Shown here in pieces: positions 5,285-23,383 of a stretch of DNA of 41,301 nt; position 1 is the first letter of the stretch; each line of letters starts with the position of its first letter. The stretch spans positions 1 through 41,301 of the forward strand of contig DAIDMR010000230.1 of assembly GCA_027448865.1 (NCBI GenBank). Reading direction: 5' to 3'. The notes under the pieces are model-generated. The model did no database searches. It had not been told where the DNA came from and saw only the letters and a program-made list of their open reading frames with translations. The stretch comes from Vampirovibrio sp. (lineage in GTDB: Bacteria; Cyanobacteriota; Vampirovibrionia; Vampirovibrionales; Vampirovibrionaceae). Position numbers and translations under genes: made by a program.

Positions 5285-5362
5285 ACAATAAAAAGTTGAT
5301 GCTTGTTGTCGCAAAGTCTTTTTCATATACTGTAACGCAAGAACAGGAAATTTCTGACTGTC

Positions 5363-5434
5363 GGGCGCATAACTCAGCGGTAGAGTGCCACCTTCACACG
5401 GTGGAAGTCGTAGGTTCAAGTCCTACTGCGCCCA
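5363..5434 (+). tRNA. tRNA-Val (anticodon CAC), intact; left attachment site
   Basis: 72-nt cloverleaf: acceptor GGGCGCA/TGCGCCC, D arm ACTC/GAGT, anticodon stem CCACC-TTCACAC-GGTGG (anticodon CAC), T arm GTAGG-TTCAAGT-CCTAC. Confidence 0.9.
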
Positions 5435-6618
5435 TATTTTTAAATCCCGAAACGCCTCACTCCCACAGGATTTTAGAGAATCCGGGGAGTTTTTTAGTTT
5501 CTGAGGATTCTCAATCTCAAAGCGGCATTTCTGCTAAAAAGAGCCAAACTTCCACAAAAGTTCAACATGTTTCGGGGCTACTTTCTGTAAGCCAGGTCAG
5601 CGAAAAGCTGGGTGTTTCTTCCATGACTGTCACACGCTGGTGTGAATCTGGAAAACTTCCGGCCACGGCCAAACCTTACGGTAAGAAAATCAGCTGGTTT
5701 ATTAGTCCTTTGGCTTTGGACATGCTGGCCCGTGAGGAAAAGATTGAACTTGAAGCGAAAAAAACAAAAAACATCAAGCCCCACAGTGAATATATGGCTC
5801 AATGGGTTCAGGCTATGGCCACCGGCACGCTGAATGGCAAAATCTACACAAAGCGTTCAATTGAGGAATATGTCCGCTATGTCAGGGCTTATCTGGAGAA
5901 TCATGCCGTGGTCACCGCTTCCGGGCTAAAATCTGAGCTGATGAGCATTCCTGCCGTGATGTTCGCCAAACGGGAAAAATATTACAAGGGTGTTCTATGC
6001 TTTGCTAGGTTCCTAGTGCAATGTGAATTTCTGGAACCTGAGTTTTTAAACTCAATCAAACCACTATTCCCAAAGCGCCATTTACCCCCCAAAAGAACCG
6101 TGGTGGATGAGACGGGGGTTGAAAACCTATTGATGGCCTGTAAAACAGTTCAGGAACGCTTAATAATCCTATTGTTAGCTCACACTGGCCTACGGGCAAG
6201 TGAGGCATGCTCCCTGGTGTGGGGGGATGTCGATATGGAGCAAGGCTTTATTGTTGTTCGCTTGGGCAAGGGGAATAAAACCCGCAAGGTTGGCATATCT
6301 GCTCGATTGATGGAGGCGTTACAGGATCAAAAGCAAGCCACTTGTCACGTTGGGACTAAACCTGTCCTGTTGGATAAGCATGGGCAAGCCATGCACCGGA
6401 GTGGTCTACTGCAAAGGCTCAAGCGTTTGGGGCGGATGGCCAGTGTTATAGTTTCCCCTCATGCCTTGCGCCGGGCCTTTGTGACTATCAATGCCAATAA
6501 AGGCCGCCCCCTGGTTATCTTGCAACGCTCTTGCGGACATTCTGACATCAAGACGACCATGAGCTACTGTCGGACGGCTGAGCAGGAGGTCATCGAGGCC
6601 ATGAAAGGGTGGGATTGA
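5434..6618 (+). CDS. int: tyrosine recombinase/integrase, body (intC) of a gene split by integration; N-terminal MerR/excisionase-like HTH plus catalytic domain
   Basis: LLSVSQVSEKLGVSSMTVTRWCESGKLP HTH; catalytic HTGLRASE (R), GKGNKTRKV (K), PHALRRAF (HxxR), CGHSDIKTTMSY (H, Y). No ATG/GTG/TTG in frame from 5434 to 5622; the frame is open through the tRNA back to 5296. Confidence 0.9.
   Translation: MFLNPETPHSHRILENPGSFLVSEDSQSQSGISAKKSQTSTKVQHVSGLLSVSQVSEKLGVSSMTVTRWCESGKLPATAKPYGKKISWFISPLALDMLAREEKIELEAKKTKNIKPHSEYMAQWVQAMATGTLNGKIYTKRSIEEYVRYVRAYLENHAVVTASGLKSELMSIPAVMFAKREKYYKGVLCFARFLVQCEFLEPEFLNSIKPLFPKRHLPPKRTVVDETGVENLLMACKTVQERLIILLLAHTGLRASEACSLVWGDVDMEQGFIVVRLGKGNKTRKVGISARLMEALQDQKQATCHVGTKPVLLDKHGQAMHRSGLLQRLKRLGRMASVIVSPHALRRAFVTINANKGRPLVILQRSCGHSDIKTTMSYCRTAEQEVIEAMKGWD
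5550..5568. promoter_or_regulatory. candidate arm-type integrase-binding site (P' side)
   Basis: TTCCACAAAAGTTCAACAT, 18/19 identical to 23222-23240 TTCCAAAAAAGTTCAACAT across the att core. Confidence 0.5.
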
Positions 6619-6649: not shown

Positions 6650-6967
6650 ATGAAGCCGACTTACGACCTAAAGCTTGTTAAAGAACTGATCCGCAATGGA
6701 CATTATCGAATAACCCTTCGGGCTCTGAGCGACGCTCAAAGTGACTTCGATTTTGATGCGGAGAGGATTTTGGAAGAAATTCTCGGGCTAAAACTACAAG
6801 AGCTAGACAAGACTATGCCTTCAGAGAAAATGCCAGATCTTTGGCAGGATGTTTACAAAAAGCGGGTCATCGTCCATGCCAGAGTCCAAACGGCCTATAT
6901 CAAGCTCAATATTGTAAGGCCTAGTAATAAAGAGACAGCCGTTGTGATCTCGTTCCACAAAGCCTAA
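6650..6967 (+). CDS. mqsR: MqsR-like toxin
   Basis: LQELDKTMPSEKMPDLWQDVYKKRV...AYIKLNIV...AVVISFHKA resembles MqsR (DFYKSM...WQDVYRPRL...YLKITV...LIVSFKE). Confidence 0.75.
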   Translation: MKPTYDLKLVKELIRNGHYRITLRALSDAQSDFDFDAERILEEILGLKLQELDKTMPSEKMPDLWQDVYKKRVIVHARVQTAYIKLNIVRPSNKETAVVISFHKA

Positions 6968-6986: not shown

Positions 6987-7472
6987 ATGAGCAGAACAAC
7001 TGACAAGGTAAAAGCAATGGGTGATTGCGCGGTTTGTGGCGCCTCGACTCTCTTGGTGGTTGTGCCCGAATGGGAGGTTCCCGGCTCCGCCACAAAGCCT
7101 GCCGTGGTTGTCCAGGCGGTTGAGTGCCTTGAATGTGAAAGCTGCGGGGAGCGCTACCTGGAGCCTGAGCAAGTCCGTGCTTTTGAGAAGAAAGTGATAG
7201 AGGCTCAACGTGCTGCAAAGAACCTGCTCAGTGCGGCAGAGATTTTGCAAATTCGTGAGTCTTTGGGCATTAACAAGGAGCGCCTTGAAAAAATCCTGAA
7301 TTTAAACCCAAAATCTTTCTACCGTTGGGAAAACAGCCTGTCTATTCAATCTGACGTAGTGGACACGATGCTGAGAATCCTGCGTAAGAACCCAAACGCA
7401 GTTTATGCTTTAGCGGAAGAGCGGCATATTCCCCTAACCGCATTAAAAGGCCGCCCTAAAAAAGCTGGATAG
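6987..7472 (+). CDS. mqsA: MqsA/YgiT-like antitoxin (zinc finger + HTH)
   Basis: CAVCG...CLECESCGERYLEPEQV zinc-binding N-terminus and HTH LRESLGINKERLEKILNLNPKSFYRWE-type C-terminus, directly downstream of the toxin. Confidence 0.8.
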   Translation: MSRTTDKVKAMGDCAVCGASTLLVVVPEWEVPGSATKPAVVVQAVECLECESCGERYLEPEQVRAFEKKVIEAQRAAKNLLSAAEILQIRESLGINKERLEKILNLNPKSFYRWENSLSIQSDVVDTMLRILRKNPNAVYALAEERHIPLTALKGRPKKAG

Positions 7473-7522: not shown

Positions 7523-7858
7523 TTAGGCTTTTGCCCCTGAAGCGTCGAGTTTCACTTCTAAATGAGCGCCAAGCACTTTAAGAATGGCTCGGATATTCGA
7601 CCACTTGGGGTTGCCTTTTTCTGACAGTAAATCATAGATATGCTCCCGTGAAACACCGGCCACGGTAGCCACTTCCGCCATGCTCAGGCCATAGGCTGCC
7701 GCTACATGCTTAACGGCTATCAGGAAAGCTGCTGGATCGTCATCTTCAAGAGCTACATTCAGATAAGCCTGGGCTAATTCAGGATCTTCTTTTAAGGATT
7801 GGTGAAGCCCCTCATCATGAAGAACAGAACGGGGTGGTGCTTTCTTTTTAGTGGCCAT
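7523..7858 (-). CDS. HTH antitoxin (HigA-like addiction module antidote)
   Basis: HTH MAEVATVAGVSREHIYDLLSEKGNPKWSNIRAILKVLGAHLEV; paired with the RelE/HigB-like ORF. Confidence 0.8.
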   Translation of the reverse strand: MATKKKAPPRSVLHDEGLHQSLKEDPELAQAYLNVALEDDDPAAFLIAVKHVAAAYGLSMAEVATVAGVSREHIYDLLSEKGNPKWSNIRAILKVLGAHLEVKLDASGAKA

Positions 7859-8189
7859 CGTTTCGGCTCCTGTAATCTTTTAAGTAAGTCTGGGCTTTGT
7901 TAATGTCGGCTTGTTGCCCATTTTTTGAGCCTCCCAGTAGGAGAAGAACAATTTTTTCACCTTCCAAGCCGTAATAAACTCGGTAGCCAGGGCCAAAATT
8001 CAGCTTGAGTTCAAAGACTCCGCCGTCTACACTCTCGGAAACACCAAAATTACCGGCTTCCATTTTGGTAACACTGTTCATGATTCGGGCCTTGGTGAGC
8101 TTATCCTTGATAGTGTTTAGCCATTCGGTGTAAGGTTCATGGCCTTGAGGCGTAACGTAGCGCTCAAGTGTTTTAGCTTGACCTTGCAT
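7848..8189 (-). CDS. RelE/HigB-like toxin (addiction module killer, Gp49-like)
   Basis: FELKLNFGPGYRVYYGLEGEKIVLLLLGGSKNGQQADINKAQTYLKDYR motif; overlaps the antitoxin start. Confidence 0.85.
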   Translation of the reverse strand: MQGQAKTLERYVTPQGHEPYTEWLNTIKDKLTKARIMNSVTKMEAGNFGVSESVDGGVFELKLNFGPGYRVYYGLEGEKIVLLLLGGSKNGQQADINKAQTYLKDYRSRNDGH

Positions 8190-8246: not shown

Positions 8247-9575
8247 TTAAGGCATTAGTTTTTCCCTAAACTTTGTCAAGTGAGGCACGAACAGAAGGGG
8301 GATCTCCATCTGGACGCCATCCCGCTGTTTGGCGATAGTCAAAGAAGCCACCCCGGTTGGCTTACGGTCTTCCATGCGCTCAATGCTGGTGAAAAGCACA
8401 ATATCGCTGTCCATTTCAATGCCGCCTGAGTCTCTAAGGTCGGAGAGCATGGGCTTCTTGTCCTGCCGGGCATCCACCGCCCGGTTCATCTGGGCCAGTT
8501 GGATAATGGGCACTTGAATGGTTTTGGCCAGAGTCTTTAAACGGCTGGTGATGGCCTGAATTTCATAGGCCCGGTTCTGTTGCTTGCTGTTGGGCTCTGA
8601 GGCAATCAAACCAATATGATCCACCACTATCAAGGCCAAATCAGGCCGCCGCTTTTTGGCTTTCATGATTTTGGACTGAATGGCCGCCAAGGTTTGACCG
8701 GCGGCATCCTCTATCATGAGATCCTTTTGGAACGGCTTCCAAGCAATGGCCGCTATCTTCAAGGCGTCCAAGTCTTTGGGGTTGCCTGCCTTAGCCTTGA
8801 TGGCCCGCTTCATTAACTCGCTGGCGGTCATTTCCAGGCTGATATAAAGCACCGGCTTCCGCTCTTGAAGCACCACATGACAAGCCACGTTCAACGCAAA
8901 AGCGGATTTACCCCCACCGGGTCGGGCAGACACGGTGATCAACTGCCAGGGCTGAAAGCCGTGGGTTGAATTATCCAGTGTGGGGAACCCCGTGGATAAT
9001 CCGGTAACCCCATTGGGACTGTTGGCCTCCGCTTCAAGCTGTTGAATGGCCTCCTCAATGGGATCGGATGTCCCCATAGTGTCGGTGGGGAAGGTTTCCG
9101 ATATTAGGTAAAGTAGATTTTCCGCCTCTTCCAGATAGGTGGACTGTTCCCGCTGGGCTGCTGAGTCGGCAATATCCTGACAGGCCAGAATCACTTCCCG
9201 CCGCCGGGCCAGATCAATCAAGAGCTTTGACCAGTGCTTCAGGCTGGCATCATTTAGAACTTGGACATCGGGATTGCTGCCAAGCATTAAATCATAGAGA
9301 TAGGCTGACCCTTCGGCTATGGCCAAGCTGCCGGAAACCTCCAGAGTCTGGGTTAAGGAAATGGGCTCTATAGGGACTTGCTGTTCAAAGCAGTCCAGCA
9401 TAGCCTGAAAGATTGCCTGATGAACGTTTGAGTAAAAGTGTTCAGGCTGAAGCAGGCCCACCACTTGGGGAAACAAAGCAGGATATTGCAGTAGCCCACA
9501 GAGAATGCCCTGCTCTACCGCCACAGAATGAGGAAGACGTTCAATTGGCTGAAGCTCTGTCTCAAAATCATGCAT
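8247..9575 (-). CDS. dnaB: replicative DNA helicase DnaB-like
   Basis: LITVSARPGGGKSAFALNVA (Walker A), LIVVDHIGLI (Walker B), MLSDLRDSGGIEMDSDIVLF; N-terminal PHSVAVEQGILCGLLQYP. Start taken at MHDFETE. Confidence 0.92.
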   Translation of the reverse strand: MHDFETELQPIERLPHSVAVEQGILCGLLQYPALFPQVVGLLQPEHFYSNVHQAIFQAMLDCFEQQVPIEPISLTQTLEVSGSLAIAEGSAYLYDLMLGSNPDVQVLNDASLKHWSKLLIDLARRREVILACQDIADSAAQREQSTYLEEAENLLYLISETFPTDTMGTSDPIEEAIQQLEAEANSPNGVTGLSTGFPTLDNSTHGFQPWQLITVSARPGGGKSAFALNVACHVVLQERKPVLYISLEMTASELMKRAIKAKAGNPKDLDALKIAAIAWKPFQKDLMIEDAAGQTLAAIQSKIMKAKKRRPDLALIVVDHIGLIASEPNSKQQNRAYEIQAITSRLKTLAKTIQVPIIQLAQMNRAVDARQDKKPMLSDLRDSGGIEMDSDIVLFTSIERMEDRKPTGVASLTIAKQRDGVQMEIPLLFVPHLTKFREKLMP

Positions 9576-10545
9576 TTGAGGGCTCCTCCAGGCAGCCTTC
9601 CAGGTGGGCGACCGGATAATAATCAAAGGTCTTCTTGTGGCTCAATCCGCTGGGGGATTCCGGGCGAATTTCGAGTTCCTCTGAACGAAACCATTCGGGG
9701 GTGTACTTATGCCGGATGAATGGGAACTTTAACAAAGCCTCTGATTGGCTGCTCAGATCCTCGATGGCATGCGTTTTTGGTGCTTCGGGTGTCCAAGCCT
9801 CTAATTTATTTTTAAGCGTCGTTTTGAACCACTGGGGCGCTGTTGCGTTTTTGGACACCGCAAGATCGCAAGTGTCTCGCCATAACCGAAGGATTTCCGG
9901 TTTGGGAATATCGGGTTTGGTTTTTGCCAGTTCCTGAAGTTGGATTTTCAGGAATCCCTGAATCCACCCAGTGTTTTGATGATTGGGGCTGTTTAGGGAG
10001 GACAGGTAAAGCATGCCCTCCTGAGCCAATGCTTGGTTGGGGTCTATTTCATTTTCCAAACCGATCACACTCACACCTGAACCGATAGGTTCGGATTGCA
10101 GGTTAGAGTTTAAGGTTAAAGGGTTAAGGGTTAAGGCCGGGCTCGGCATCGCCTTGGTTGTGCTTAGGCACTGCCTAGGTTGTGCCTCGGCATCACCTAG
10201 GTTTGCCTTGGAAATTGGACAGGGTGGAATCTCGCTCTCTGCCTCACGGATGTGTGGTTTTTGATGCTTATGGAAGTTCTCGATTTGAATAAACTTCTCC
10301 CCTTCGATCTGGTAACGGGTGATAAACCGGCCTGAACTATCAGCAAGTTCATTTAAGAGAGGTTCTATATCAATGGCTTCAAATGGGAACAGTTCGGCCT
10401 TTATTTTTAATGGCCGGTCTTCTAATCGGCCACGGCGATCAGCAAGCAGCCATAGACCTGCAAATAATAAACGGGCATAGGGGCTCACCTGAACCAGAAA
10501 TTCGTTTTTATAGAATCCTGGCTTTAAAAGTCTGGCTCTGGCCAT
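9568..10545 (-). CDS. phage replication-initiator-like protein (replication protein O / replisome organizer type)
   Basis: N-terminal MARARLLKPGFYKNEFLVQVSPYARLLFAGLWLLADRRGRLEDRP typical of phage replisome organizers; overlaps dnaB start. Confidence 0.7.
   Translation of the reverse strand: MARARLLKPGFYKNEFLVQVSPYARLLFAGLWLLADRRGRLEDRPLKIKAELFPFEAIDIEPLLNELADSSGRFITRYQIEGEKFIQIENFHKHQKPHIREAESEIPPCPISKANLGDAEAQPRQCLSTTKAMPSPALTLNPLTLNSNLQSEPIGSGVSVIGLENEIDPNQALAQEGMLYLSSLNSPNHQNTGWIQGFLKIQLQELAKTKPDIPKPEILRLWRDTCDLAVSKNATAPQWFKTTLKNKLEAWTPEAPKTHAIEDLSSQSEALLKFPFIRHKYTPEWFRSEELEIRPESPSGLSHKKTFDYYPVAHLEGCLEEPSNA
10101..10208. repeat. iteron cluster inside the initiator gene; candidate replication origin
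   Basis: GGTTAA-type 7-8 bp repeats (10101-10136) followed by three tandem 22-bp units 10143-10164, 10165-10186, 10187-10208. Confidence 0.5.
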
Positions 10546-11101: not shown

Positions 11102-11311
11102 TTAGTTATTGGTTGGACTTTTAAATTCAAGGACTTTGGCGGGTTTGTGTTCGGCGGCACGGCGGGCCATAACCTTCTGATGAAGCTGGGTAATGTTTTC
11201 TTCAAAGATTGCCATTGCAGCTTGCAGGTCACCGACTATCTTTTGATAACTGCTGTTTTCCTCTGCCGTCATCTGCTCTTCGAGCAGATTTTTGAAGATT
11301 CCTTCACGCAT
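11102..11311 (-). CDS. hypothetical 69-aa protein
   Basis: ORF overlapping the upstream gene end. Confidence 0.55.
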   Translation of the reverse strand: MREGIFKNLLEEQMTAEENSSYQKIVGDLQAAMAIFEENITQLHQKVMARRAAEHKPAKVLEFKSPTNN

Positions 11312-11930
11312 GATTAGAGTCCTCTTTTTGGTTTTTGAGTTCTGATAACGGTCGTAAAATGCCTTCCCGGTGCAGGGTGTGAACTCTTACGGTGTACCGG
11401 TGCCCTTCATCTCTTAAATGAGGCTTTACATCTGCCCGAAAGCTCCAGCCAAACATTTCAATTCGAGTTTCCAGTCCGGCCAGTTCTACATGAGCAAAAA
11501 TGTAACCATCGGCAAGGTGGGTAAAACGGTTGGTTTTACTGATTTTCAGCCTGAGGCTTTCTGATTTACTAGATTTAACATCCAGCTTCAAGCCTTCCAC
11601 TACAACGTCATAGCCACCATCTGTTCCTTTAAGCCCAGCCAGAAACTCAGAAATGATTTTTTCTGCTGTAAACCCTAAGTAACGTTGAACGGCTATTTCC
11701 CCCAATAGGCCAATATAGTCGGCTTCTGGGTTCCACCGTGAAGTGGTTTTCCAGTCCCGTTTCCTTAGCTCAGACACCTCTCGGATAATCTCAGACGCAT
11801 CCCTAGAGAATCGCAGAATGGGTCTGTCACCTTCAAAAATGTAGCTGGATTCGATGGCAATCTTGAAAGCCTTTTCCCCCCTTGGGGTAAGCCCCCGAAA
11901 GCCGGGCCGGATGGTAATCAATTCAGACAT
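11304..11930 (-). CDS. PD-(D/E)XK nuclease-like protein
   Basis: GLLGEIAVQRYLG...GTDGGYDVVVEGLKLDVKSSK resembles the E...D...DVK signature. Start taken at MSELITIRPG with aaagga upstream. Confidence 0.5.
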   Translation of the reverse strand: MSELITIRPGFRGLTPRGEKAFKIAIESSYIFEGDRPILRFSRDASEIIREVSELRKRDWKTTSRWNPEADYIGLLGEIAVQRYLGFTAEKIISEFLAGLKGTDGGYDVVVEGLKLDVKSSKSESLRLKISKTNRFTHLADGYIFAHVELAGLETRIEMFGWSFRADVKPHLRDEGHRYTVRVHTLHREGILRPLSELKNQKEDSNHA

Positions 11931-11977
11931 AGTTCTATCCTTTATTTCTTGGTTACAGGGGTGAATTTTCAAAGTAC

Positions 11978-12088: not shown

Positions 12089-13051
12089 TTAGATTTGGGT
12101 AGTTTTCGGGTAGCAATTTTGCTCTATTTCCCAGTCTAATCTTATTTTCCCTTGATTTAATCTCAGTAGAATATGACCAGGCACAATCCTTTTAAAATCT
12201 GACTTGATGGCATTGACCTGCGCTTTGAATTGGTCACAATCCATTTCCAAGTCTCTGCTAAGAGTGTCGATATCAGCCGTGCCACCCTTTTCAATCAAAC
12301 TTTTTAATAGTTTGTGCTTATCATAGCCTCTTCTCAGAAACGGCTGTTTACCGAAGTAGACCTGTGGCTCTTCAAATTCATCAAGACCTATGTAGAAGGT
12401 GTTTGAACGGTTGTTTGGACATTGCTGCTCGTTTTGTCCAGATTGGTTGAGGGTGTTTTCTCCCTCAGCAGGGGGTAAATCAATATCAGCAGTGGCTTCC
12501 TCAATTTTGAGGTCGTTGGTTTCTGTGTCCAGTAAGTTTCCGGTCAGTTCGCTCAATCCCTCGAAAAAGCTTTCTGCCTCAAAATTCAACCACCAAAAGC
12601 CTTGGATCATTGAATCTTTGAAAAGGGCGACTGCTACAATTCGACAAAGACCCTCTAGTTCGGATTCTGAAGGAGATAGCGTAATGTCTGAGAGGTTCAG
12701 GAAAGCTAGGACACTTCGGCTTAAAATCTGTTTTAAGTAGATAGGTGCTTCTACAGGGTAGCCTTTAATCCTTTCGGGGAGTGATTGAATTACAAATTCA
12801 AGAAATTCTGGTTGAAAAGCTTGCCACTGAAGGGGGCCTTGGTTTTTGAATCTCTCTATTGCAAGGTCGTCAAAATCCCGATAAACCATCAACACAAGTT
12901 TTCGGGCGATGTTTTGTTTTTGCTCGTCGGACAAATTTTCAAGGGAGGGTAAGTCAATAAACGGCAATGCGACTTTCAGGAAAGCCAGCTTCCAGTCTGT
13001 GGCCGTTTTCAGGTTCCAGATAGATAGATCGTTTGATGGGGCTTGACTCAT
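12089..13051 (-). CDS. unknown protein with a possible C-terminal winged-helix domain
   Basis: Long ORF; C-terminal KLLKSLIEKGGTADIDTLSRDLEMDCDQFKAQVNAIKSDF looks wHTH-like. Confidence 0.6.
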   Translation of the reverse strand: MSQAPSNDLSIWNLKTATDWKLAFLKVALPFIDLPSLENLSDEQKQNIARKLVLMVYRDFDDLAIERFKNQGPLQWQAFQPEFLEFVIQSLPERIKGYPVEAPIYLKQILSRSVLAFLNLSDITLSPSESELEGLCRIVAVALFKDSMIQGFWWLNFEAESFFEGLSELTGNLLDTETNDLKIEEATADIDLPPAEGENTLNQSGQNEQQCPNNRSNTFYIGLDEFEEPQVYFGKQPFLRRGYDKHKLLKSLIEKGGTADIDTLSRDLEMDCDQFKAQVNAIKSDFKRIVPGHILLRLNQGKIRLDWEIEQNCYPKTTQI

Positions 13052-13120: not shown

Positions 13121-13585
13121 TTACTTTTTCTTTGACCTGATTAAAACTTCGCCTTCCTCCTCATCCTCCCAGGAGATCAGTTTAAAATCTTTTAAAACCT
13201 CGAAAATCATATCCAGGGCTTCTTCTGGCCTGACCTTATCTAAGTCCGCAAAGAAAAACCCGCCAATATCCACCGCCAAGTCAAACCGAAATGCGATGTC
13301 CTGTCTGGCTTTCTTCTCTGGGAAATCAACCTGCCGCCAAGTTACATAATCATTGCCTTCCACCGGCTTAAAGTACTTCAGAATGTCTTTAAGCCAAGCG
13401 TCGAACTGCTCATAAAACTCGCTGTCTTCATAAGATGTGTCTGTGGACTTGAGATAAATCCACCGGGCATCGATGAACTTGCGCTGAGCCTTCCCTTTTT
13501 CAACCAACAGGCAGGGAATATCCAGCAATTTGTCATTGAACTGAACGTAAACAGGTTTTTTCTCTGGGGGTGGGGGCTTGGTCAT
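13121..13585 (-). CDS. hypothetical 154-aa protein
   Basis: ORF in operon, abutting its neighbour. Confidence 0.65.
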   Translation of the reverse strand: MTKPPPPEKKPVYVQFNDKLLDIPCLLVEKGKAQRKFIDARWIYLKSTDTSYEDSEFYEQFDAWLKDILKYFKPVEGNDYVTWRQVDFPEKKARQDIAFRFDLAVDIGGFFFADLDKVRPEEALDMIFEVLKDFKLISWEDEEEGEVLIRSKKK

Positions 13586-14537: not shown

Positions 14538-14747
14538 CTAGTTTTCTAAAAAAGCTTCTTCAGGGTGTTTTTGTAGGACTTCAACGGCAAGGTCTATAAG
14601 TTCACCAATGCTTTTGTCGGCCTCTGCCTTTTGATTTTCAAGCCAAACCTTAGTTTCGGGTGCTACTCGGCAGGTAAGAGTCTGTCGTTTTAAGTCATCT
14701 GAGATCGCAGGCCTGCCACCACCTCTCCATCCACCTCTAGGGGACAT
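14538..14747 (-). CDS. small ribbon-helix-helix-like protein (69 aa)
   Basis: MSPRGGWRGGGRPAISDDLKRQTLTCRVAPETKVWLENQKAEADKSIGELIDLAVEVL resembles RHH/CopG-like regulators; first gene of the minus-strand operon. Confidence 0.5.
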   Translation of the reverse strand: MSPRGGWRGGGRPAISDDLKRQTLTCRVAPETKVWLENQKAEADKSIGELIDLAVEVLQKHPEEAFLEN

Positions 14748-15119: not shown

Positions 15120-15351
15120 AAAGAGCCCTTGAGATAGAAGCTCCCAAGGACTCAAGTCCAATCGCAAAGGTCAATCATTGAAAGGACAAAACAAGCCTAA
15201 CACGAAACCCCGTAATCACACACCATCGTTAGAACATCAATAAGAGAGAGGTAGAGAGAGAATGCACCCCCAACCCGCTAACGGGCAAGCTTGCGCTGCC
15301 CTGAAAACCTATAACAGTCGCACCGAAAGCAACCCACAGGAGGAAAACACC

Positions 15352-16002
15352 ATGGCCTTGAGAGCCGAATCCCTGAAACCTGAATTAAATTTGCTGGTGT
15401 TACCTGGCACCCCATCCGACAATCTAAGTGATGAAGACTGGGCTGAAAAGGCCTTGCGTTCAAAGCTGCCGATTGAGCGTTTAGAGTTTATGCGCCAAAT
15501 GGTGGCCCGGCATCCTGAGGAGCAAGCGCAACAGGCCCGCTATATTGAGCTGCTGGAAGGTCTGGTTCGAGAGTGGGAAGGGGATTACAGTAACCCGATT
15601 ACCAGCTATGGGGTGCTGGCTCACTTCCGGCAACTGCCAGAGGATGTTTTTCTGGAGCGCTTGGGCGCTGTCTTCCAGAAGGCAAAAATCAAGCTGAATG
15701 AAGACCAGGCTCGGGAAGCTCACCGGGATATGGTAAACATTGAATTGCCAGTGTTGCCTCAGCAGGAACGGGAGGCGCTTTATTTGCTGGGGGAAAGTAA
15801 CACCCCTACCCAGAATCGCATCTTTCTGGAACTGTTACAGGATATGACGGGGCAGCTCATTTTCGACTATTGCGACACGCTGGATCTTTTCGATGTTTTT
15901 GAGACGAAAGACTGGCTGGCGGAAACGGTCATTCAAGCCCTGAAAAGGTTGAGGCCCGATTTTCGAGAAATGCTAATATCCACCCTGAACGGCATGAAGT
16001 AA
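15352..16002 (+). CDS. unknown protein (216 aa)
   Basis: ORF start MALRAESLKPELN preceded by caggagg Shine-Dalgarno. Confidence 0.7.
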   Translation: MALRAESLKPELNLLVLPGTPSDNLSDEDWAEKALRSKLPIERLEFMRQMVARHPEEQAQQARYIELLEGLVREWEGDYSNPITSYGVLAHFRQLPEDVFLERLGAVFQKAKIKLNEDQAREAHRDMVNIELPVLPQQEREALYLLGESNTPTQNRIFLELLQDMTGQLIFDYCDTLDLFDVFETKDWLAETVIQALKRLRPDFREMLISTLNGMK

Positions 16003-16197
16003 GTCCTAAAGCGCCTGAATAGAAAGAAAGCCCACTGAGCTAAGCCGCTTGGTGGGCTTTCGAGAGGTCGGGGTAAAATTTCGATAACTGACTCGGAGAT
16101 TTTACCGAGTGCAATTTTTCGCTCAGCCTTCCTCTTTTTTACGAAGACGAAAATTCGATTTTCCTATAAAACACACTGCCATTGGGCCTTTTTAAAT

Positions 16198-16209
16198 TGA
16201 GAATTCTCA
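16198..16209. promoter_or_regulatory. palindromic operator-like site TGAGAATTCTCA, copy 1
   Basis: Perfect 12-bp palindrome within repeated tttaaattgagaattctcaca. Confidence 0.5.
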
Positions 16210-16264
16210 CACAATTAAATGGATCAATATATTTATGATATTGAGAAAACACTTTTTAGGTCAA

Positions 16265-16273
16265 TGCTATAAT
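16265..16273 (+). promoter_or_regulatory. extended -10 promoter TGCTATAAT
   Basis: Perfect TGnTATAAT upstream of the non-coding structured region. Confidence 0.55.
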
Positions 16274-16279
16274 TGGGTT

Positions 16280-16740
16280 CGGGCTTGCAAAGGTGTGTTT
16301 ACAGTACATTGCTGCCGCAGGCCAAAAGCAATTTAAATCTATAAAATAAAAACATGAACGGCCAAGTTAAGCCGCAGAGCAGGTGGGCGAGTGAAACGAG
16401 GACGGCTGCGAAGAGGCCCCGTCGAGCAAAGCGAGACCCTGAAAAGCTTACCTTTTTACAGTGTAAATAAAAAAAAGAAAAAGCCTACTTGATGCGTTCC
16501 CGCAGCGGAGCGAGGAAACGCATGCCTCACCGGGGAGGTGGTTCCCCTGGAAGGGGCGGAGGGGTAGTTTAACTGAAAACCTGTGATTGGGCCATCCTAT
16601 TTTTTAAACAGCCGAAAAATTTTAAAATTGAGAATTCTCACAAAAAACATCTAGATCGCCGCAATTTTGCGGAGACTATTAACCACCCCAATTTTGGGAG
16701 CGTTAGATTTAACAGCGGGCGTCTCCCAGTTTGAAGGCCG
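16280..16740 (+). ncRNA. candidate structured non-coding RNA region
   Basis: No substantial ORF; many stems: CGCAG/CTGCG, GTCGAGCaaaGCGAGAC, ATGCGTT/AACGCAT (16492-16523), CCCCtggaaGGGG, CCGCAATTTTGCGG, CCCAATTTTGGG, GTTA/TAAC enclosed by GGAGAC/GTCTCC (16671-16726). Confidence 0.4.
16629..16640. promoter_or_regulatory. palindromic operator-like site TGAGAATTCTCA, copy 2
   Basis: Same palindrome and flanks as 16198-16209. Confidence 0.5.
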
Positions 16741-17252: not shown

Positions 17253-17714
17253 TTAAGCCTCTTTCATGGCTTCTTTTTGCTGATTCAGAACGACTGTGTG
17301 AATCCGATCCATCGCCTTTACGGCCACATCGGCCAAAGCAGCCAAATCCCGATCTTTGAGAGGCGTTTCATCGGCCAGCCGGGCATTGATGCGCTCAATC
17401 AACTTACGAAGTACACCGCTGGACTCTGTGAGCAGTGCGGCCAACTCGGTCACGTCCTGGTCAAGCGCTCTGTTAATCTTTTCCTGCCGCTCTTCCAGGT
17501 AGGCTTTCACACCCTCGTCAATGCGCTCCTTATGAGCGTTTATAATCTCACGCACCGCCTGCCGGGAATAACCGTGGCGTTTCATTAACTCCCCAATGGT
17601 CAGGCCAGCAATGCGATCCTGAACCACCTTTTCATGCTTGCCGGTTTCTTTGACCGACTGCGCTTTTGGCGTTGGCTTCTTGGCTTTACTTTTTATAGTT
17701 TTGTCTTTTTGCAT
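17253..17714 (-). CDS. HTH protein; possible terminase small-subunit-like
   Basis: HTH DRIAGLTIGELMKRHGYSRQAVREIINAHKE followed by coiled-coil-like helices; TerS assignment tentative. Confidence 0.5.
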   Translation of the reverse strand: MQKDKTIKSKAKKPTPKAQSVKETGKHEKVVQDRIAGLTIGELMKRHGYSRQAVREIINAHKERIDEGVKAYLEERQEKINRALDQDVTELAALLTESSGVLRKLIERINARLADETPLKDRDLAALADVAVKAMDRIHTVVLNQQKEAMKEA

Positions 17715-17863: not shown

Positions 17864-18433
17864 TTGAAATTAGCAGAGATTATGCTTGATCGTGGCATGA
17901 CTGATTCTGAACTTGCCAAAGCCATAGGCGTTCAGCAATCAACCGTTTTCCAGTGGAAAGCAGGCGGCTTTTCTCCTAAGGCAAAGAGTCTGTTTAAGCT
18001 TTGCGACGTTTTAAATTGCTCCACCAATGAACTGCTTGGGTTCAACTCTGTTGATGTGTCTTTACCCGACTATCAAGGACAGCGCCTTTATGACGCCGTT
18101 ACTCAAGAAGGGCATTTTGATTCCCAGTTGATTCATATTTTTGCAACCCGGATCCGCAAATTTGCTGGGAAAGCCACCAGTCTTGAAACGTGGATGAGAC
18201 ATATTGCGGAAGCTCTCTATGAAATAGAACTCGCCAAGAGCGATCCTGCTTCCCTCTCCAACGCTCCTCGGGGCTTGGTTGCTGTACCGGATCAAGAGAC
18301 TGCCGATATTACTCAGCGCAATTTTGCGCCTACTTTTGTAGTGGAAGCATCTGATGTCAAGCCGCTCAGTCTGAGAAAGATTGATCGAAAGCGGCGTAAA
18401 AAAGCATTGCGCTTTAAATCTGGTAAAAACTGA
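17864..18433 (+). CDS. XRE-family transcriptional regulator
   Basis: MTDSELAKAIGVQQSTVFQWKAGGFSPKAKSLFKLCDVLNCSTNELLGF HTH. TTG 17864 or ATG 17881 start. Confidence 0.75.
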   Translation: MKLAEIMLDRGMTDSELAKAIGVQQSTVFQWKAGGFSPKAKSLFKLCDVLNCSTNELLGFNSVDVSLPDYQGQRLYDAVTQEGHFDSQLIHIFATRIRKFAGKATSLETWMRHIAEALYEIELAKSDPASLSNAPRGLVAVPDQETADITQRNFAPTFVVEASDVKPLSLRKIDRKRRKKALRFKSGKN

Positions 18434-18517: not shown

Positions 18518-21500
18518 ATGACTGAAGAAAAAATAGCGATAAGTTACGAGGCCAAAGGCGTTGGTCAGTTTATAAAGTCCGCCAAAGACGCTGAGAAGGC
18601 TTTGCGGGAAGAGGCCAAGGCGCTGGATGTGTCAGTCAATCAGATTCAGAAGCGCATCATCGAATTAAAGAAGTCAGGCACGGCCAGCCAGGCACAAATT
18701 CGGGCCTTGCAACTAGAAAGCCAAGCCCTTCGTTTAAATTCCGCAGACTTGAAAAACCAAGCCGCTGCACTTAACCAACAAGCCCAAGCCGCCAAACAAG
18801 CCCTTCGTCCTGCTGAAGATCTGACCAAAGCATTGTTAAGCCAAGGCGTGGCCGCTGTTGGAACCGGGGTGGCTTTTGCGGGTTTAGGCGTTGGATTATC
18901 GAAAGCAATCACTGGGTTTGGAGACTTTGAGCGGACGCTGAACACCATTAAGGCAGTGTCTCAAACCACGGCTGGGGAGCTAGATGCTATCAAGCGCTCA
19001 GCCTTAGAACTGGGTGCTAAAACCATCTTTTCCAATCAGGAAGTGGCAAACTCTTACCTGGAATTAGCTCGGGCCGGGTTTACCACTCAGGAATCCTTGG
19101 CCGCTATGCCGGGTTTGCTCAGTTTGGCTGCAGCCGCTGGGGGTGATCTGTCCTCCTCTGCTGAAATTACAGCCGGGATTCTCAGGGGCTTTAACCTAAA
19201 CGCTTCTGAAGCGGGCCGGGTGGCTGACGTGTTAGCCCAAGCCGCCAATGTGTCCGCCGGTGAAATTGGAGACTTTGGGGCGGCCCTGAAGCAATTAGCC
19301 CCTGTGGCCCTCAGCTCTAACCAGTCCCTTGAGGATTTATCCGGCTTACTGGCCGTTCTGTCTAACCGGATGATTAATGGAGCGGATGCCGGAACCGACT
19401 TGAAAGCGGTTCTATTACGTTTGGTAAGGCCAGAAACACAAAAAGAACTCAAAGCCTTAGGGTTAGAAGTCACCGACACCGAGAAGCGCATTAAGCCGCT
19501 GATTCAGATTATTGGAGAGTTTCAGCAAAAGTTCAAAACCCTGAATCAGGCTGGACAGCTTGAAGTCGCTGGCAAAATTGCAGGCATTGAAAACGTAAAA
19601 TCCCTTTTGACCCTGATTAACACGGATAAAGGGGAGCTGGAAGAGTTCATCGCCAAAATGAAATCAGCGGATGGGGCCGCTGCCTCTATGGCTGCAACCA
19701 TCAATCAAGGGGTGAACACCTCCCTTGAGCAGTTTGGCGGCTCGGTGGAAACGCTTGCCTCTAAACTAGGTGAAAAGCTGGCTCCTGCGTTTACCGCTGT
19801 TGTGGACACCGCCACGGATCTATTTACTGCCTTGGGTAGTAATGACGGCTTGCAAGCCTTCACCATTGGGGCTGCTGCCGCTGTGGTGGGTGTGGGTAGC
19901 TTGGTGGGGGCATTAAAACTGATCCCGCCTGTGATTGAAGCTGTAAAAGCAAGCTCCCTTGCTCTTTCCGTCGCCTTGGGCATTGAAACCGGGGGACTGA
20001 CTTGGGTCATTGGTGGGCTGATTGCCGCCGGTGGGGCGCTGGGGGTGATGTACCAGCAGCAATCCGAGAATCAGCGCCGCATGGCTCAAACCACTCTGGA
20101 ACTTAGAGGAGAAGTGGATCAGCTTACTGAATCTCAGGCTCAAGAGGCTTTAAAAACAATCAAGCTGGCAAAGGAATATGATGAGCTGTCAAAGAAGAAA
20201 AACCTAACCAGCAGTGAAAGCCAGCGCTTAGGGGATTTGGCCGATTTTCTAGTGACTCAATTAGGCGTTGAGGGAGAATCGGTTGATCAGCTCACTAAAA
20301 AATATGGTTCTCTGACAGCGGCCATTCGGGAGAAAACCATCGCTCAGCTTGCCGAAAAAAGACAAGAGGCTCTGACTGAAAAACTGAAACAAACACAGGC
20401 CGATAGAAAACAGGCTGGCTTAGATGTACAGGCGGCTCAAGGCGCGGAAGGTAACTTCTTTAACCTGATTTACGGGCCAGATGGCAAGCTGGTGACAGGA
20501 AAGGCTCGAAGGAAACTCCTTAGCAGCCAGACAAGAAAAGCCAAAGAGACGCTGGAAAGGCTGAAGCGAAAGGAAGAGTTTGAAAAAGATGCTATCCTTT
20601 CGGCCTTGGATGACACACGAAAGATTGTAAGCGCCACGGAGAATCCACCCAAAAATCCAGCGCCTAGCAATTTTGGCAATCAAAATGCCCCAAGCTCTGG
20701 GGGAAGTACCAAGAAGCCCCGGCAAGGGCGGTCTCAAGATTCTGTTGAAAGACGGCAAGTGAGTGACATCCTCAAGGGACAGAGCGCCTTTACGGCCAAC
20801 CTGGACGCCAATGAAGCATTATTCAAAGCAAACCTTGGGCCGGAGCCAACACGGGTTGAGTTGGCGGCTATTGAAACTCGTAAGCTGGCACTTGCTGAAA
20901 AAGAGTTGCTAGAAACCCAGAAACAACTGAACGCTTTAAATCCCAAAACGGAAGGGGGGCTTGAGGCCCGTAAAACCGCACTGGAAAATGTGGCCGCTGA
21001 GCTAACCAGAAACAAAGTGGCCACCAAAGAGTTGGAGAACGAGACAGCCCGATTCAACAAGACTATTCAGAACCGGGAGCGGGACTTTATCCAAAACCTG
21101 CAAGCCAATGGCGCTCAAAATGAGTTCAGCCAGCTTGCAGAGAATATCCAGCAGCGCCAGCAGGAGATTGAAACCCTTTATGATAAAGGCCTGATCACGG
21201 CCGAGGAATATTACGGCAGACTTGCAGAAGCCAGCAAGTTTCAAGCAGACGCTGAAATTAAGTTTATTGAGCAGCAAATTGCCGCTATTGACGCCCAGGA
21301 AGAAGCCCTAACCGGCCTTGAGATTGAGAACGGTAAGCTTTTAGAGCTTGAACAAAAGCGGGCGGAGCTGCAAGGACAAATCACGGTCAAGCTGAAACAA
21401 CAGCAAACCACCCAAGCCGAACTGAGCGCCAAGCTCACCAAAAGCCTAGAGGCTACTGGCGATAGACTGGGCAATGCCTTTGAGCAGCAGTTATCTAACG

Positions 21501-22870
21501 CCATTCAGGACGCTTTGACCGGCGGTGGGGTGCTTGGGGCGATCAAGCAATTCGCCAAGGCGTTTGGTGGCTCTGTCCTGAAAGAATTGGCCGATGGACT
21601 GGCTAAAAATGCCAGAATAGCGCTTGAGCCATTCCTTCAAGCAATCGGCCAAGGCATTAACCGGCTGTTTGGACGACAAAGCAACCCTAACGGCGCAGCT
21701 TCCCCCGGCCTTGGGATTTCCGGAGCTTCTATTGGCAAAGCGGGGGCCGCCGCCGCAGGCATCGCAATCTCCTCTTTAGGCGCTAATATCGCCGGGCAGA
21801 ATAGAAGCACAGGCCGGAATTTGGCAGGGGTTGGCGTTGGCGCTGCTGGTGGTGCTATTGCCGGGGCCACCATTGGCTCTATTGTCCCTGTGGTTGGAAC
21901 GGCAATTGGCGCAGTGCTTGGGGCTGCTGTAGGCGGAACTGCGGCGGCTGCAAAATCCAGCGGTGGAGCTTTCGCAGGTAAAAGCAAAAGCGCTTTAATT
22001 GGTGGTCTTGCGGGTGGGGGATTAGGCTTTTTAATTGGCGGCTTTTTAGGAGCTGCCAAAAGAAAGCGTGAAATTGAGCGGCAGCAAAAAATTGCAGACG
22101 AGTTAGTAAATAAGGCTCTTAACGGCGCAGACCAAAATAATATTTTAGACCTACAAGGCCGCAGAAGCGCACTGTTGCGAAATAACAAAGGTCTGACCGG
22201 CAGCCGGGTTAAAACCATCCGGGATGGCGTGGCTCAAATTGACGCACTGATTAAAGCCCGGCAAACCTCAATCAATGAAGCCATCAAGGAATTTGAGAAG
22301 CAAAACAAAGACTTGGCCGACCAAGTGGCCTTGAATGATGCCAAGCCATTCGAGCAAGCCGCTATTGAGCGGAAAATAGCCATCCGACAAATCGAGTTCG
22401 ACACGGCCAAGCTATTAGAGCAGTTTAAGGACTCCGAGAAGGCCAAGACCCAGATCCTTGAGCAGGAAGCCTTGAAGCGGAAGCTGTTGCAGCAGCAGGA
22501 GTCTGACAATGCCAAGGAACTGGTGCTGGATTATCAAGACTTGCTCAAGCAGCGGGATGAAGTGGCGAATGCAAACGTGTTCCAGCGGGCTAAAAGCGCT
22601 GAGCAGGTCAAAAAAGAAGCCCTCAGCAATATCGATAAAGACATTGCAGAGGCAGTTTTAAAGCTGCAAGGTGTTTTGAATGCGGGCATTACCCCTAGTA
22701 AGGCTTCGGGATTGAATCAGGTACTTGGGCAGCTCCAGCAACTTAATGGCTCAAATGCTACCTTGAATGTCTATATTGATGAAGCCAATGATCCAGCTAT
22801 GGTGAATGAAGCTGTAACCAGAGCGTTTAACTCATTTGCCATGAAAGTCTTTGGAGCCAATGCTGTTTAG
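18518..22870 (+). CDS. phage tail tape measure protein (TP901-type), 1450 aa
   Basis: FERTLNTIKAVSQTTAGELDAIKRSALELGAKTIFSNQEVANSYLELARAGFTTQE...GDFGAALKQLAPVA motifs; long coiled-coil; C-terminal glycine-rich hydrophobic segment. Confidence 0.9.
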   Translation: MTEEKIAISYEAKGVGQFIKSAKDAEKALREEAKALDVSVNQIQKRIIELKKSGTASQAQIRALQLESQALRLNSADLKNQAAALNQQAQAAKQALRPAEDLTKALLSQGVAAVGTGVAFAGLGVGLSKAITGFGDFERTLNTIKAVSQTTAGELDAIKRSALELGAKTIFSNQEVANSYLELARAGFTTQESLAAMPGLLSLAAAAGGDLSSSAEITAGILRGFNLNASEAGRVADVLAQAANVSAGEIGDFGAALKQLAPVALSSNQSLEDLSGLLAVLSNRMINGADAGTDLKAVLLRLVRPETQKELKALGLEVTDTEKRIKPLIQIIGEFQQKFKTLNQAGQLEVAGKIAGIENVKSLLTLINTDKGELEEFIAKMKSADGAAASMAATINQGVNTSLEQFGGSVETLASKLGEKLAPAFTAVVDTATDLFTALGSNDGLQAFTIGAAAAVVGVGSLVGALKLIPPVIEAVKASSLALSVALGIETGGLTWVIGGLIAAGGALGVMYQQQSENQRRMAQTTLELRGEVDQLTESQAQEALKTIKLAKEYDELSKKKNLTSSESQRLGDLADFLVTQLGVEGESVDQLTKKYGSLTAAIREKTIAQLAEKRQEALTEKLKQTQADRKQAGLDVQAAQGAEGNFFNLIYGPDGKLVTGKARRKLLSSQTRKAKETLERLKRKEEFEKDAILSALDDTRKIVSATENPPKNPAPSNFGNQNAPSSGGSTKKPRQGRSQDSVERRQVSDILKGQSAFTANLDANEALFKANLGPEPTRVELAAIETRKLALAEKELLETQKQLNALNPKTEGGLEARKTALENVAAELTRNKVATKELENETARFNKTIQNRERDFIQNLQANGAQNEFSQLAENIQQRQQEIETLYDKGLITAEEYYGRLAEASKFQADAEIKFIEQQIAAIDAQEEALTGLEIENGKLLELEQKRAELQGQITVKLKQQQTTQAELSAKLTKSLEATGDRLGNAFEQQLSNAIQDALTGGGVLGAIKQFAKAFGGSVLKELADGLAKNARIALEPFLQAIGQGINRLFGRQSNPNGAASPGLGISGASIGKAGAAAAGIAISSLGANIAGQNRSTGRNLAGVGVGAAGGAIAGATIGSIVPVVGTAIGAVLGAAVGGTAAAAKSSGGAFAGKSKSALIGGLAGGGLGFLIGGFLGAAKRKREIERQQKIADELVNKALNGADQNNILDLQGRRSALLRNNKGLTGSRVKTIRDGVAQIDALIKARQTSINEAIKEFEKQNKDLADQVALNDAKPFEQAAIERKIAIRQIEFDTAKLLEQFKDSEKAKTQILEQEALKRKLLQQQESDNAKELVLDYQDLLKQRDEVANANVFQRAKSAEQVKKEALSNIDKDIAEAVLKLQGVLNAGITPSKASGLNQVLGQLQQLNGSNATLNVYIDEANDPAMVNEAVTRAFNSFAMKVFGANAV

Positions 22871-23266: not shown

Positions 23267-23383
23267 ATGGCAAAACGCACGCCAGATGCGCATAACTCAG
23301 CGGTAGAGTGCCACCTTCACACGGTGGAAGTCGTAGGTTCAAGTCCTACTGCGCCCACCACTCTGTTACAACAAACAAACTAA
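23267..23383 (+). CDS. intN: N-terminal fragment of the split integrase (start codon + core peptide), running into chromosomal sequence
   Basis: caggag SD 8 nt before ATG 23267; MAKRTPDAHNSAVECHLHTVEVVGSSPTAP in the same frame through the core as intC; followed here by host-derived TTLLQQTN-stop. Confidence 0.75.
   Translation: MAKRTPDAHNSAVECHLHTVEVVGSSPTAPTTLLQQTN
23288..23357 (+). repeat. attR: 70-bp tRNA-Val direct repeat lacking the first two acceptor bases
   Basis: Identical to 5365-5434; 5' bases AT instead of GG disrupt pairs 1-72 and 2-71. Confidence 0.92.

What the first reader, a model, noticed from the sequence alone, without database searches (positions are those of the whole stretch)
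18518..22870. Lone tape-measure protein: satellite that may set or hijack a helper phage tail
The ~17.9 kb element has a full-length 1450-aa TP901-type tape measure gene and replication genes, but I recognise no capsid, portal, large terminase, tail tube or baseplate gene. Tape measure proteins dictate siphophage/myophage tail length. Inference: the element is a phage satellite that substitutes its own tape measure (and perhaps a TerS-like protein at 17253-17714) during helper infection, redirecting tail assembly or DNA ejection toward its own genome.
Basis: partly seen in the sequence, partly recalled or inferred. Interest (0 to 1): 0.8.

Follow-up and report, generated by a model that had tools for sequence, protein, structure and literature searches.

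The report
Phage satellite carrying its own tail-ruler
A 17.9-kb mobile element in a Vampirovibrio genome lacks every recognisable virus-particle gene except one intact gene for the protein that sets phage tail length, so it may be a virus parasite that puts its own ruler into a helper virus's tail, as was recently shown for cholera-bacterium satellites.

Summary
18518-22870 encodes an intact 1450-aa tape measure protein (TMP; PF10145 E=3.5e-44). It is the last gene of a 17.9-kb element bounded by a 70-bp exact duplication of tRNA-Val, with an integrase at the other end; a congener has the empty site. Profile scans find Rep, DnaB, two toxin-antitoxin pairs and regulators, but no TerL, portal, capsid, tail tube, tail chaperone or baseplate gene. 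The 'TerS' at 17253-17714 is only a weak candidate, but a sibling element in the genus has a true TerS inside its replication operon. The TMP and its upstream HTH gene recur intact (about 49% and 44% identity) in a second Vampirovibrio genome, among decayed prophage debris, again without tail genes; codon-position divergence shows past protein-level constraint. Best reading: a satellite that inserts its own TMP into helper tails. V. cholerae PLEs were shown to do this (Nature 2026, PMC12987554), which also reports putative tmp genes in PLE-like elements and cf-PICIs, so the kind is known. New here: a remote host lineage, no tail chaperone or capsid gene, and a conserved HTH-TMP pair. No helper with a matching TMP was found; substitution is inferred, not shown.

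The parts
5365..5434 (+). attL: 70-bp core = positions 3-72 of tRNA-Val(CAC); the full tRNA here is 5363-5434
5296..6618 (+). tyrosine recombinase (integrase) with N-terminal HTH_17; the listed ORF start lies upstream of the tRNA, so the true start is probably downstream of it
   Evidence: PF00589 E=2.3e-30; 53-55% identical to integrases of sibling elements in G001 and G003
6650..6967 (+). MqsR-type toxin
   Evidence: PF15723 E=1.8e-16
6987..7472 (+). MqsA-type antitoxin
   Evidence: PF15731 E=5.6e-11
7523..7858 (-). HigA-type antitoxin/regulator
   Evidence: PF21716 E=3.3e-15
7848..8189 (-). HigB/Gp49-type toxin
   Evidence: phrog_3445 toxin E=2.4e-26; 46% identical in G001 element
8247..9626 (-). 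DnaB-type replicative helicase
   Evidence: PF03796 E=1.6e-64; 94% identical in G003, 63% in G001
9568..10545 (-). phage-type replication initiator
   Evidence: phrog_16167 E=4.8e-42; 69/54/45% identical in G003/G001/G010
11304..11972 (-). conserved 222-aa protein with a possible nuclease-like E...D...DVK pattern (by eye)
   Evidence: present in G001 (53%) and G010 (37%) elements; no Pfam/PHROG match
12089..13051 (-). 320-aa protein of unknown function
   Evidence: no family match; no relative among the other genomes searched
13121..13585 (-). 154-aa protein, weak antirepressor-like match
   Evidence: AntA E=0.0046, below cut-off
14538..14747 (-). 69-aa small protein shared with the G001 element
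   Evidence: 41% identity, E=2e-7
15262..16002 (+). 246-aa protein of unknown function; single-sequence model of residues 31-246 poor (pLDDT 52)
16189..16645 (.). two copies of a 26-nt repeat around the palindrome TTGAGAATTCTCAC (16189-16214 and 16620-16645), in the gene-poor centre; possible operator or origin sites
17253..17714 (-). 153-aa HTH protein, candidate small terminase (TerS); weak
   Evidence: phrog_51 TerS E=0.0038; AF2 model = HTH plus two long helices, pLDDT 77; no confident fold match
17864..18433 (+). XRE-type HTH regulator, 84 bp upstream of TMP, same strand; conserved with TMP in G002
   Evidence: PF01381 E=6e-11; 44% identity to L007 7019-7639
18518..22870 (+). tape measure protein, 1450 aa, intact
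   Evidence: PF10145 E=3.5e-44, phrog_1533 2.7e-84; full-length homologue in G002
23288..23357 (+). attR: second copy of the 70-bp core; this copy carries the encoded CCA end
   Evidence: empty site in G003:C5

Best explanation
The element is a phage satellite integrated in tRNA-Val of a Vampirovibrio. Shown: it is a discrete insertion with an integrase, Rep, DnaB, regulators and toxin-antitoxin pairs, and its only recognisable virion gene is an intact TMP with its own HTH regulator. Inferred: after a helper phage infects or is induced, the element excises and replicates with its own Rep and DnaB, and its DNA is packaged into helper heads (possibly via its TerS-like protein and helper TerL). 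Late expression of its 1450-aa TMP, on helper tail chaperone, tube and baseplate, makes satellite-specific (chimeric) tails; the TMP would set tail length, bypass helper-TMP-directed defences, or adapt DNA ejection. This is the PLE mechanism reduced to the TMP alone.
For: Complete att-bounded 17.9-kb element with empty site in a congener. No other head or tail family among its ORFs. Sibling elements sharing integrase, DnaB, Rep or the 222-aa gene sit near tRNA genes in G001, G003 and G010; the G001 one carries a true TerS (PF03592 E=1.8e-31) inside the rep operon, and G001 has no PF04860 portal or phrog_38 TerL. HTH-TMP pair kept intact in two genomes at 44-50% identity, with codon-position divergence 0.41/0.30/0.67. 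Direct precedent: PLE TMPs replace the ICP1 TMP in chimeric tails and tmp deletions cut PLE transduction; putative tmp genes in PLE-like elements and cf-PICIs (PMC12987554).
Against: No helper found: no PF04860 portal in G000, G001, G002 or G004, and no homologous TMP in any complete prophage of the genus; the own genome is only 76% complete. No tail assembly chaperone beside the TMP, unlike PLEs. TerS assignment weak. The only homologous HTH-TMP locus lies in prophage debris. No expression, excision or packaging data. The constraint signal covers the whole history since the two copies split, including any time spent in phages.
Confidence: 0.5

Rival explanations
1. Relic: the element is a reduced prophage, or acquired the HTH-TMP pair from a decayed phage by recombination; the TMP is passenger DNA that has not yet decayed and does nothing.
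For: In G002 the only other HTH-TMP copy lies among debris of a prophage of the G003:C7 kind (capsid C-terminal fragment, truncated methyltransferase, fragmented UmuC- and SRAP-like genes). No siblings with TMP in G001, G003 or G010.
Against: A 1450-codon ORF is intact in both genomes, with a conserved regulator directly upstream and more change at third codon positions. No other virion gene remnants in the element. att sites, integrase, rep and DnaB are intact. The same pair kept twice without tail genes is unlikely for random relics.
Confidence: 0.25
2. Interference: the TMP is made to sabotage phages (dominant-negative or chaperone-titrating), giving tailless helper or rival virions, as a defence rather than for the satellite's own tails.
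For: Tail assembly is a known target of satellite- and prophage-encoded defences (Tai: PMC11364771; PLE11 Rta: PMC12987554). No tail chaperone is encoded, so the TMP would compete for the helper's. Own regulator upstream.
Against: Known tail inhibitors are not full-length TMPs. The protein keeps the general TMP layout (N-terminal PF10145 domain, hydrophobic segments at 105-128, 444-512 and 1105-1179). The full length is conserved. No PADLOC match.
Confidence: 0.15
3. The element is a plain integrative element that moves without phage help, and the TMP serves another role (for example a membrane-active or tailocin-associated protein).
For: No demonstrated packaging gene; TerS label weak.
Against: No conjugation genes among the ORFs scanned; replication genes match phage families; sibling with true TerS; no tailocin genes nearby.
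Confidence: 0.1

Closest known systems
PLE satellites of Vibrio cholerae (PLE11, PLE1, PLE4) with satellite-encoded TMP and chimeric tails (PMC12987554)
   Same: Small integrated element without its own full virion, encoding a full TMP.
   Different: PLE tmp sits with a tail assembly chaperone (and a baseplate hub in PLE11); none is recognisable here. Here a tyrosine integrase at tRNA-Val and own DnaB/Rep. Unrelated host lineage (Vampirovibrio, Cyanobacteriota). Incorporation of the TMP is shown for PLEs, not here.
cf-PICIs with putative tmp genes (PMC12987554 Extended Data Fig. 10, legend only)
   Same: Satellite outside the PLE family with a predicted TMP.
   Different: cf-PICIs encode capsid genes (general knowledge); none is found here.
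PICIs / SaPIs
   Same: Size, integrase, replication module, TerS in the sibling element; TerL, portal and capsid absent.
   Different: Classical PICIs are not known to carry TMP; the repressor/alpA/pri-rep module of PICIs was not identified; DnaB-type helicase instead.
TP901-1 / Tuc2009 siphophage tape measure proteins
   Same: 40% identity over residues 135-435 (PF10145 region).
   Different: C-terminal ~1000 aa unrelated; in Tuc2009 the TMP is preceded by tail chaperone genes, here by an HTH regulator.

Membership tests
Phage satellite (general) | Discrete integrated element with integrase and att sites | tested here: met
   70-bp att repeat, integrase, empty site
Phage satellite (general) | Lacks genes for a complete virion (no TerL/portal/capsid/tail tube) | tested here: met
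   Pfam/PHROG scans of 20 ORFs and tblastn of local prophage proteins; tiny ORFs not covered
Phage satellite (general) | Mobilised and packaged by a helper phage | not testable with these tools
   No helper identified in own genome or congeners
PICI | TerS for redirected packaging | tested here: inconclusive
   17253-17714: phrog_51 E=0.0038, no confident fold match; sibling in G001 has true TerS
PICI | Characteristic regulator (stl/alpA) and pri-rep arrangement | tested here: not met
   HTH regulators and Rep+DnaB instead
cf-PICI | Own capsid and packaging genes | tested here: not met
   No capsid family hit
TMP-carrying, chimeric-tail satellite (PLE type) | Encodes its own full-length TMP | tested here: met
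TMP-carrying, chimeric-tail satellite (PLE type) | Encodes a tail assembly chaperone next to the TMP | tested here: not met
   Only an HTH regulator lies upstream of the TMP and attR downstream
TMP-carrying, chimeric-tail satellite (PLE type) | TMP is incorporated in satellite virions | not testable with these tools
   needs induction and mass spectrometry
Tape measure protein family (PF10145) | Above the curated Pfam cut-off | tested here: met
   151.5 bits against cut-off 33.2

The most novel reading that the evidence does not exclude
A capsid-less, tail-chaperone-less satellite family in Vampirovibrio hijacks tail assembly by a single substituted protein, its own HTH-controlled tape measure: an independent origin of chimeric-tail building far from Vibrio, with the HTH-TMP pair moving as a unit between elements.
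Probability: 0.4. Interest if true: 0.7.

Novelty: new variant of a known kind. Interest (0 to 1): 0.5.

Why it matters
Satellites were long thought to take whole helper tails. PLEs overturned that in 2026, with PLE-like elements and cf-PICIs named as further candidates. A lone, regulated TMP in a satellite of a distant lineage would suggest that TMP substitution is convergent and that the TMP alone suffices, which makes testable whether tail length, ejection or escape from TMP-directed defence is the benefit.

Tried and rejected
Single-sequence genome and viral scans with the whole TMP found nothing; the two-sequence profile found only G002 and weak distant TMPs. The C-terminal 950 aa found no relative in viral contigs, nor in 386 sampled genomes of the phylum other than its own (G002 was evidently not in that sample). 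The Rep N-terminus is widespread in phages and so not satellite-specific. TerS fold search inconclusive; no close relatives of the TerS-like protein in 289 class genomes, phages or viral contigs. The 246-aa protein modelled too poorly to use. A programmed frameshift at the HTH 3' end (chaperone-like) was considered by eye and rejected: the A-run heptamer is out of register and not conserved in G002.

Full report
OBSERVATION. ORF 18518-22870 (+) is an uninterrupted 1450-codon gene. It scores 151.5 bits against Pfam PhageMin_Tail (cut-off 33.2) and E=2.7e-84 against a PHROG tape-measure family. Residues 135-435 are 40% identical to the tape measure proteins (TMPs) of lactococcal phages TP901-1 and Tuc2009; the rest has no match in 50,697 phage records. 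By eye, AAGGTG lies 7 nt before its ATG.

BOUNDARIES. Two tRNA-Val(CAC) genes (5363-5434 and 23286-23360) share a 70-bp exact repeat, 17,923 bp apart. The integrase lies next to the left copy and the TMP ends about 420 bp before the right copy. In congener G003:C5 the left flank, a single tRNA-Val and the right flank are contiguous; the joined window flanks align through the junction at 85% over 1.7 kb. The element is therefore a real insertion.

CONTENT. From attL: integrase; MqsR/MqsA; HigA/HigB; DnaB; phage-type Rep; small proteins; a conserved 222-aa protein; a 320-aa and a 154-aa protein; small proteins; a 246-aa protein on the other strand; a gene-poor centre with two 26-nt repeats around a palindrome; a TerS-like HTH protein; an XRE HTH regulator; the TMP; attR. 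No terminase large subunit, portal, capsid, tail tube, chaperone or baseplate family matched. tblastn of proteins from local prophages and Tuc2009 hit only TMP, HTH and integrase.

RELATIVES. The host is a Vampirovibrio: genus-mate G002 is the public MAG 'Vampirovibrio sp. isolate C_No_T20_B_bin.46'. Integrase, DnaB and Rep recur in elements in G001 and G003, and more distantly in G010, each on a contig with a tRNA gene close by (tRNA-Asp, tRNA-Arg, tRNA-Asp). DnaB is 94% identical in G003. The G001 element has a true TerS (PF03592, 1.8e-31) followed by rep genes, not by TerL. G001 has no PF04860 portal and no phrog_38 TerL, though a TerL of another type (phrog_2) lies just beyond its tRNA-Asp. 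The left end of the G001 element is cut by the contig end. None of these three genomes has the TMP.

THE HTH-TMP PAIR. Only G002 has a full-length homologue: 1462 aa, 49-50% identical, preceded by a homologous HTH gene (44%). In G002 it has no tail genes beside it. It lies among debris of a prophage of the G003:C7 kind: the last 46 residues of a capsid protein at 91% identity, TerS-like, TerL and ParB genes still open, a truncated methyltransferase, and fragmented UmuC- and SRAP-like genes. Divergence between the two TMP genes at codon positions 1/2/3 is 0.41/0.30/0.67, so the protein was constrained for at least part of the time since they split. Both copies are intact.

HELPER. No helper was found. 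The own genome (76% complete) has no PF04860 portal; it has a TerL module on contig C231 without capsid genes. Mu/P2-like prophages with portal, capsid and contractile-tail genes exist in G003 and G007; their TMPs are about 600 aa, and G007's is only 30% identical over the PF10145 region.

TerS. 17253-17714 matches phrog_51 at E=0.0038. Its single-sequence AF2 model is an HTH followed by two long helices (pLDDT 77), but Foldseek gave no confident match. It remains a candidate.

MECHANISM. PMC12987554 showed that PLE11 of V. cholerae incorporates its own TMP and baseplate hub into chimeric tails, that PLEs encode a TMP with a tail chaperone, and that tmp deletion lowers PLE1 and PLE4 transduction by 96 and 99%; it lists PLE-like elements and cf-PICIs with putative tmp genes. 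The same logic fits here with fewer parts: satellite TMP, helper everything else. By rough proportion to TP901-1 and lambda tails (general knowledge), 1450 aa would give a tail of about 180-220 nm; this is inference only.

VERDICT. Observation confirmed. The satellite reading is well supported in anatomy. TMP substitution is plausible and has a precedent but is not shown. The relic rival stays at about one in four. The idea is no longer new as a kind; the chaperone-less, capsid-less, HTH-linked form in Vampirovibrio is a new variant.

Noticed in passing
G000:C231 (L146 10453-16351): Own genome has an intact TerL (555 aa), a TerS-like protein, ParB-like protein and a DNA methyltransferase with no capsid or portal nearby, beside an XerD-like recombinase and a divergent short SAM-like ORF; a similar recombinase pair lies near tRNA-Pro in G002:C210 (L008 18201-19590).
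   Followed up: partly
G000:C231 (L146 18302-19954, L147 439-1853): Possible defence island by eye: CD-NTase-like protein, a 241-aa protein and an AAA ATPase next to a second recombinase.
   Followed up: no
L020 2439-3179 and 12845-14335: Sibling element in G001 has TerS inside the rep operon; a different TerL (phrog_2) lies just beyond its tRNA-Asp.
   Followed up: partly
window 16189-16214 and 16620-16645: 26-nt repeat (92% identical copies) with palindrome TTGAGAATTCTCAC in the gene-poor centre; a one-mismatch relative at 5502-5514.
   Followed up: partly
window 11304-11972: 222-aa protein conserved in two sibling elements, with a nuclease-like E...D...DVK pattern by eye and no Pfam/PHROG match.
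   Followed up: no
L007 11884-13062: A predicted secreted protein gene overlaps the end of the G002 TMP on the opposite strand, suggesting a recombination junction there.
   Followed up: no
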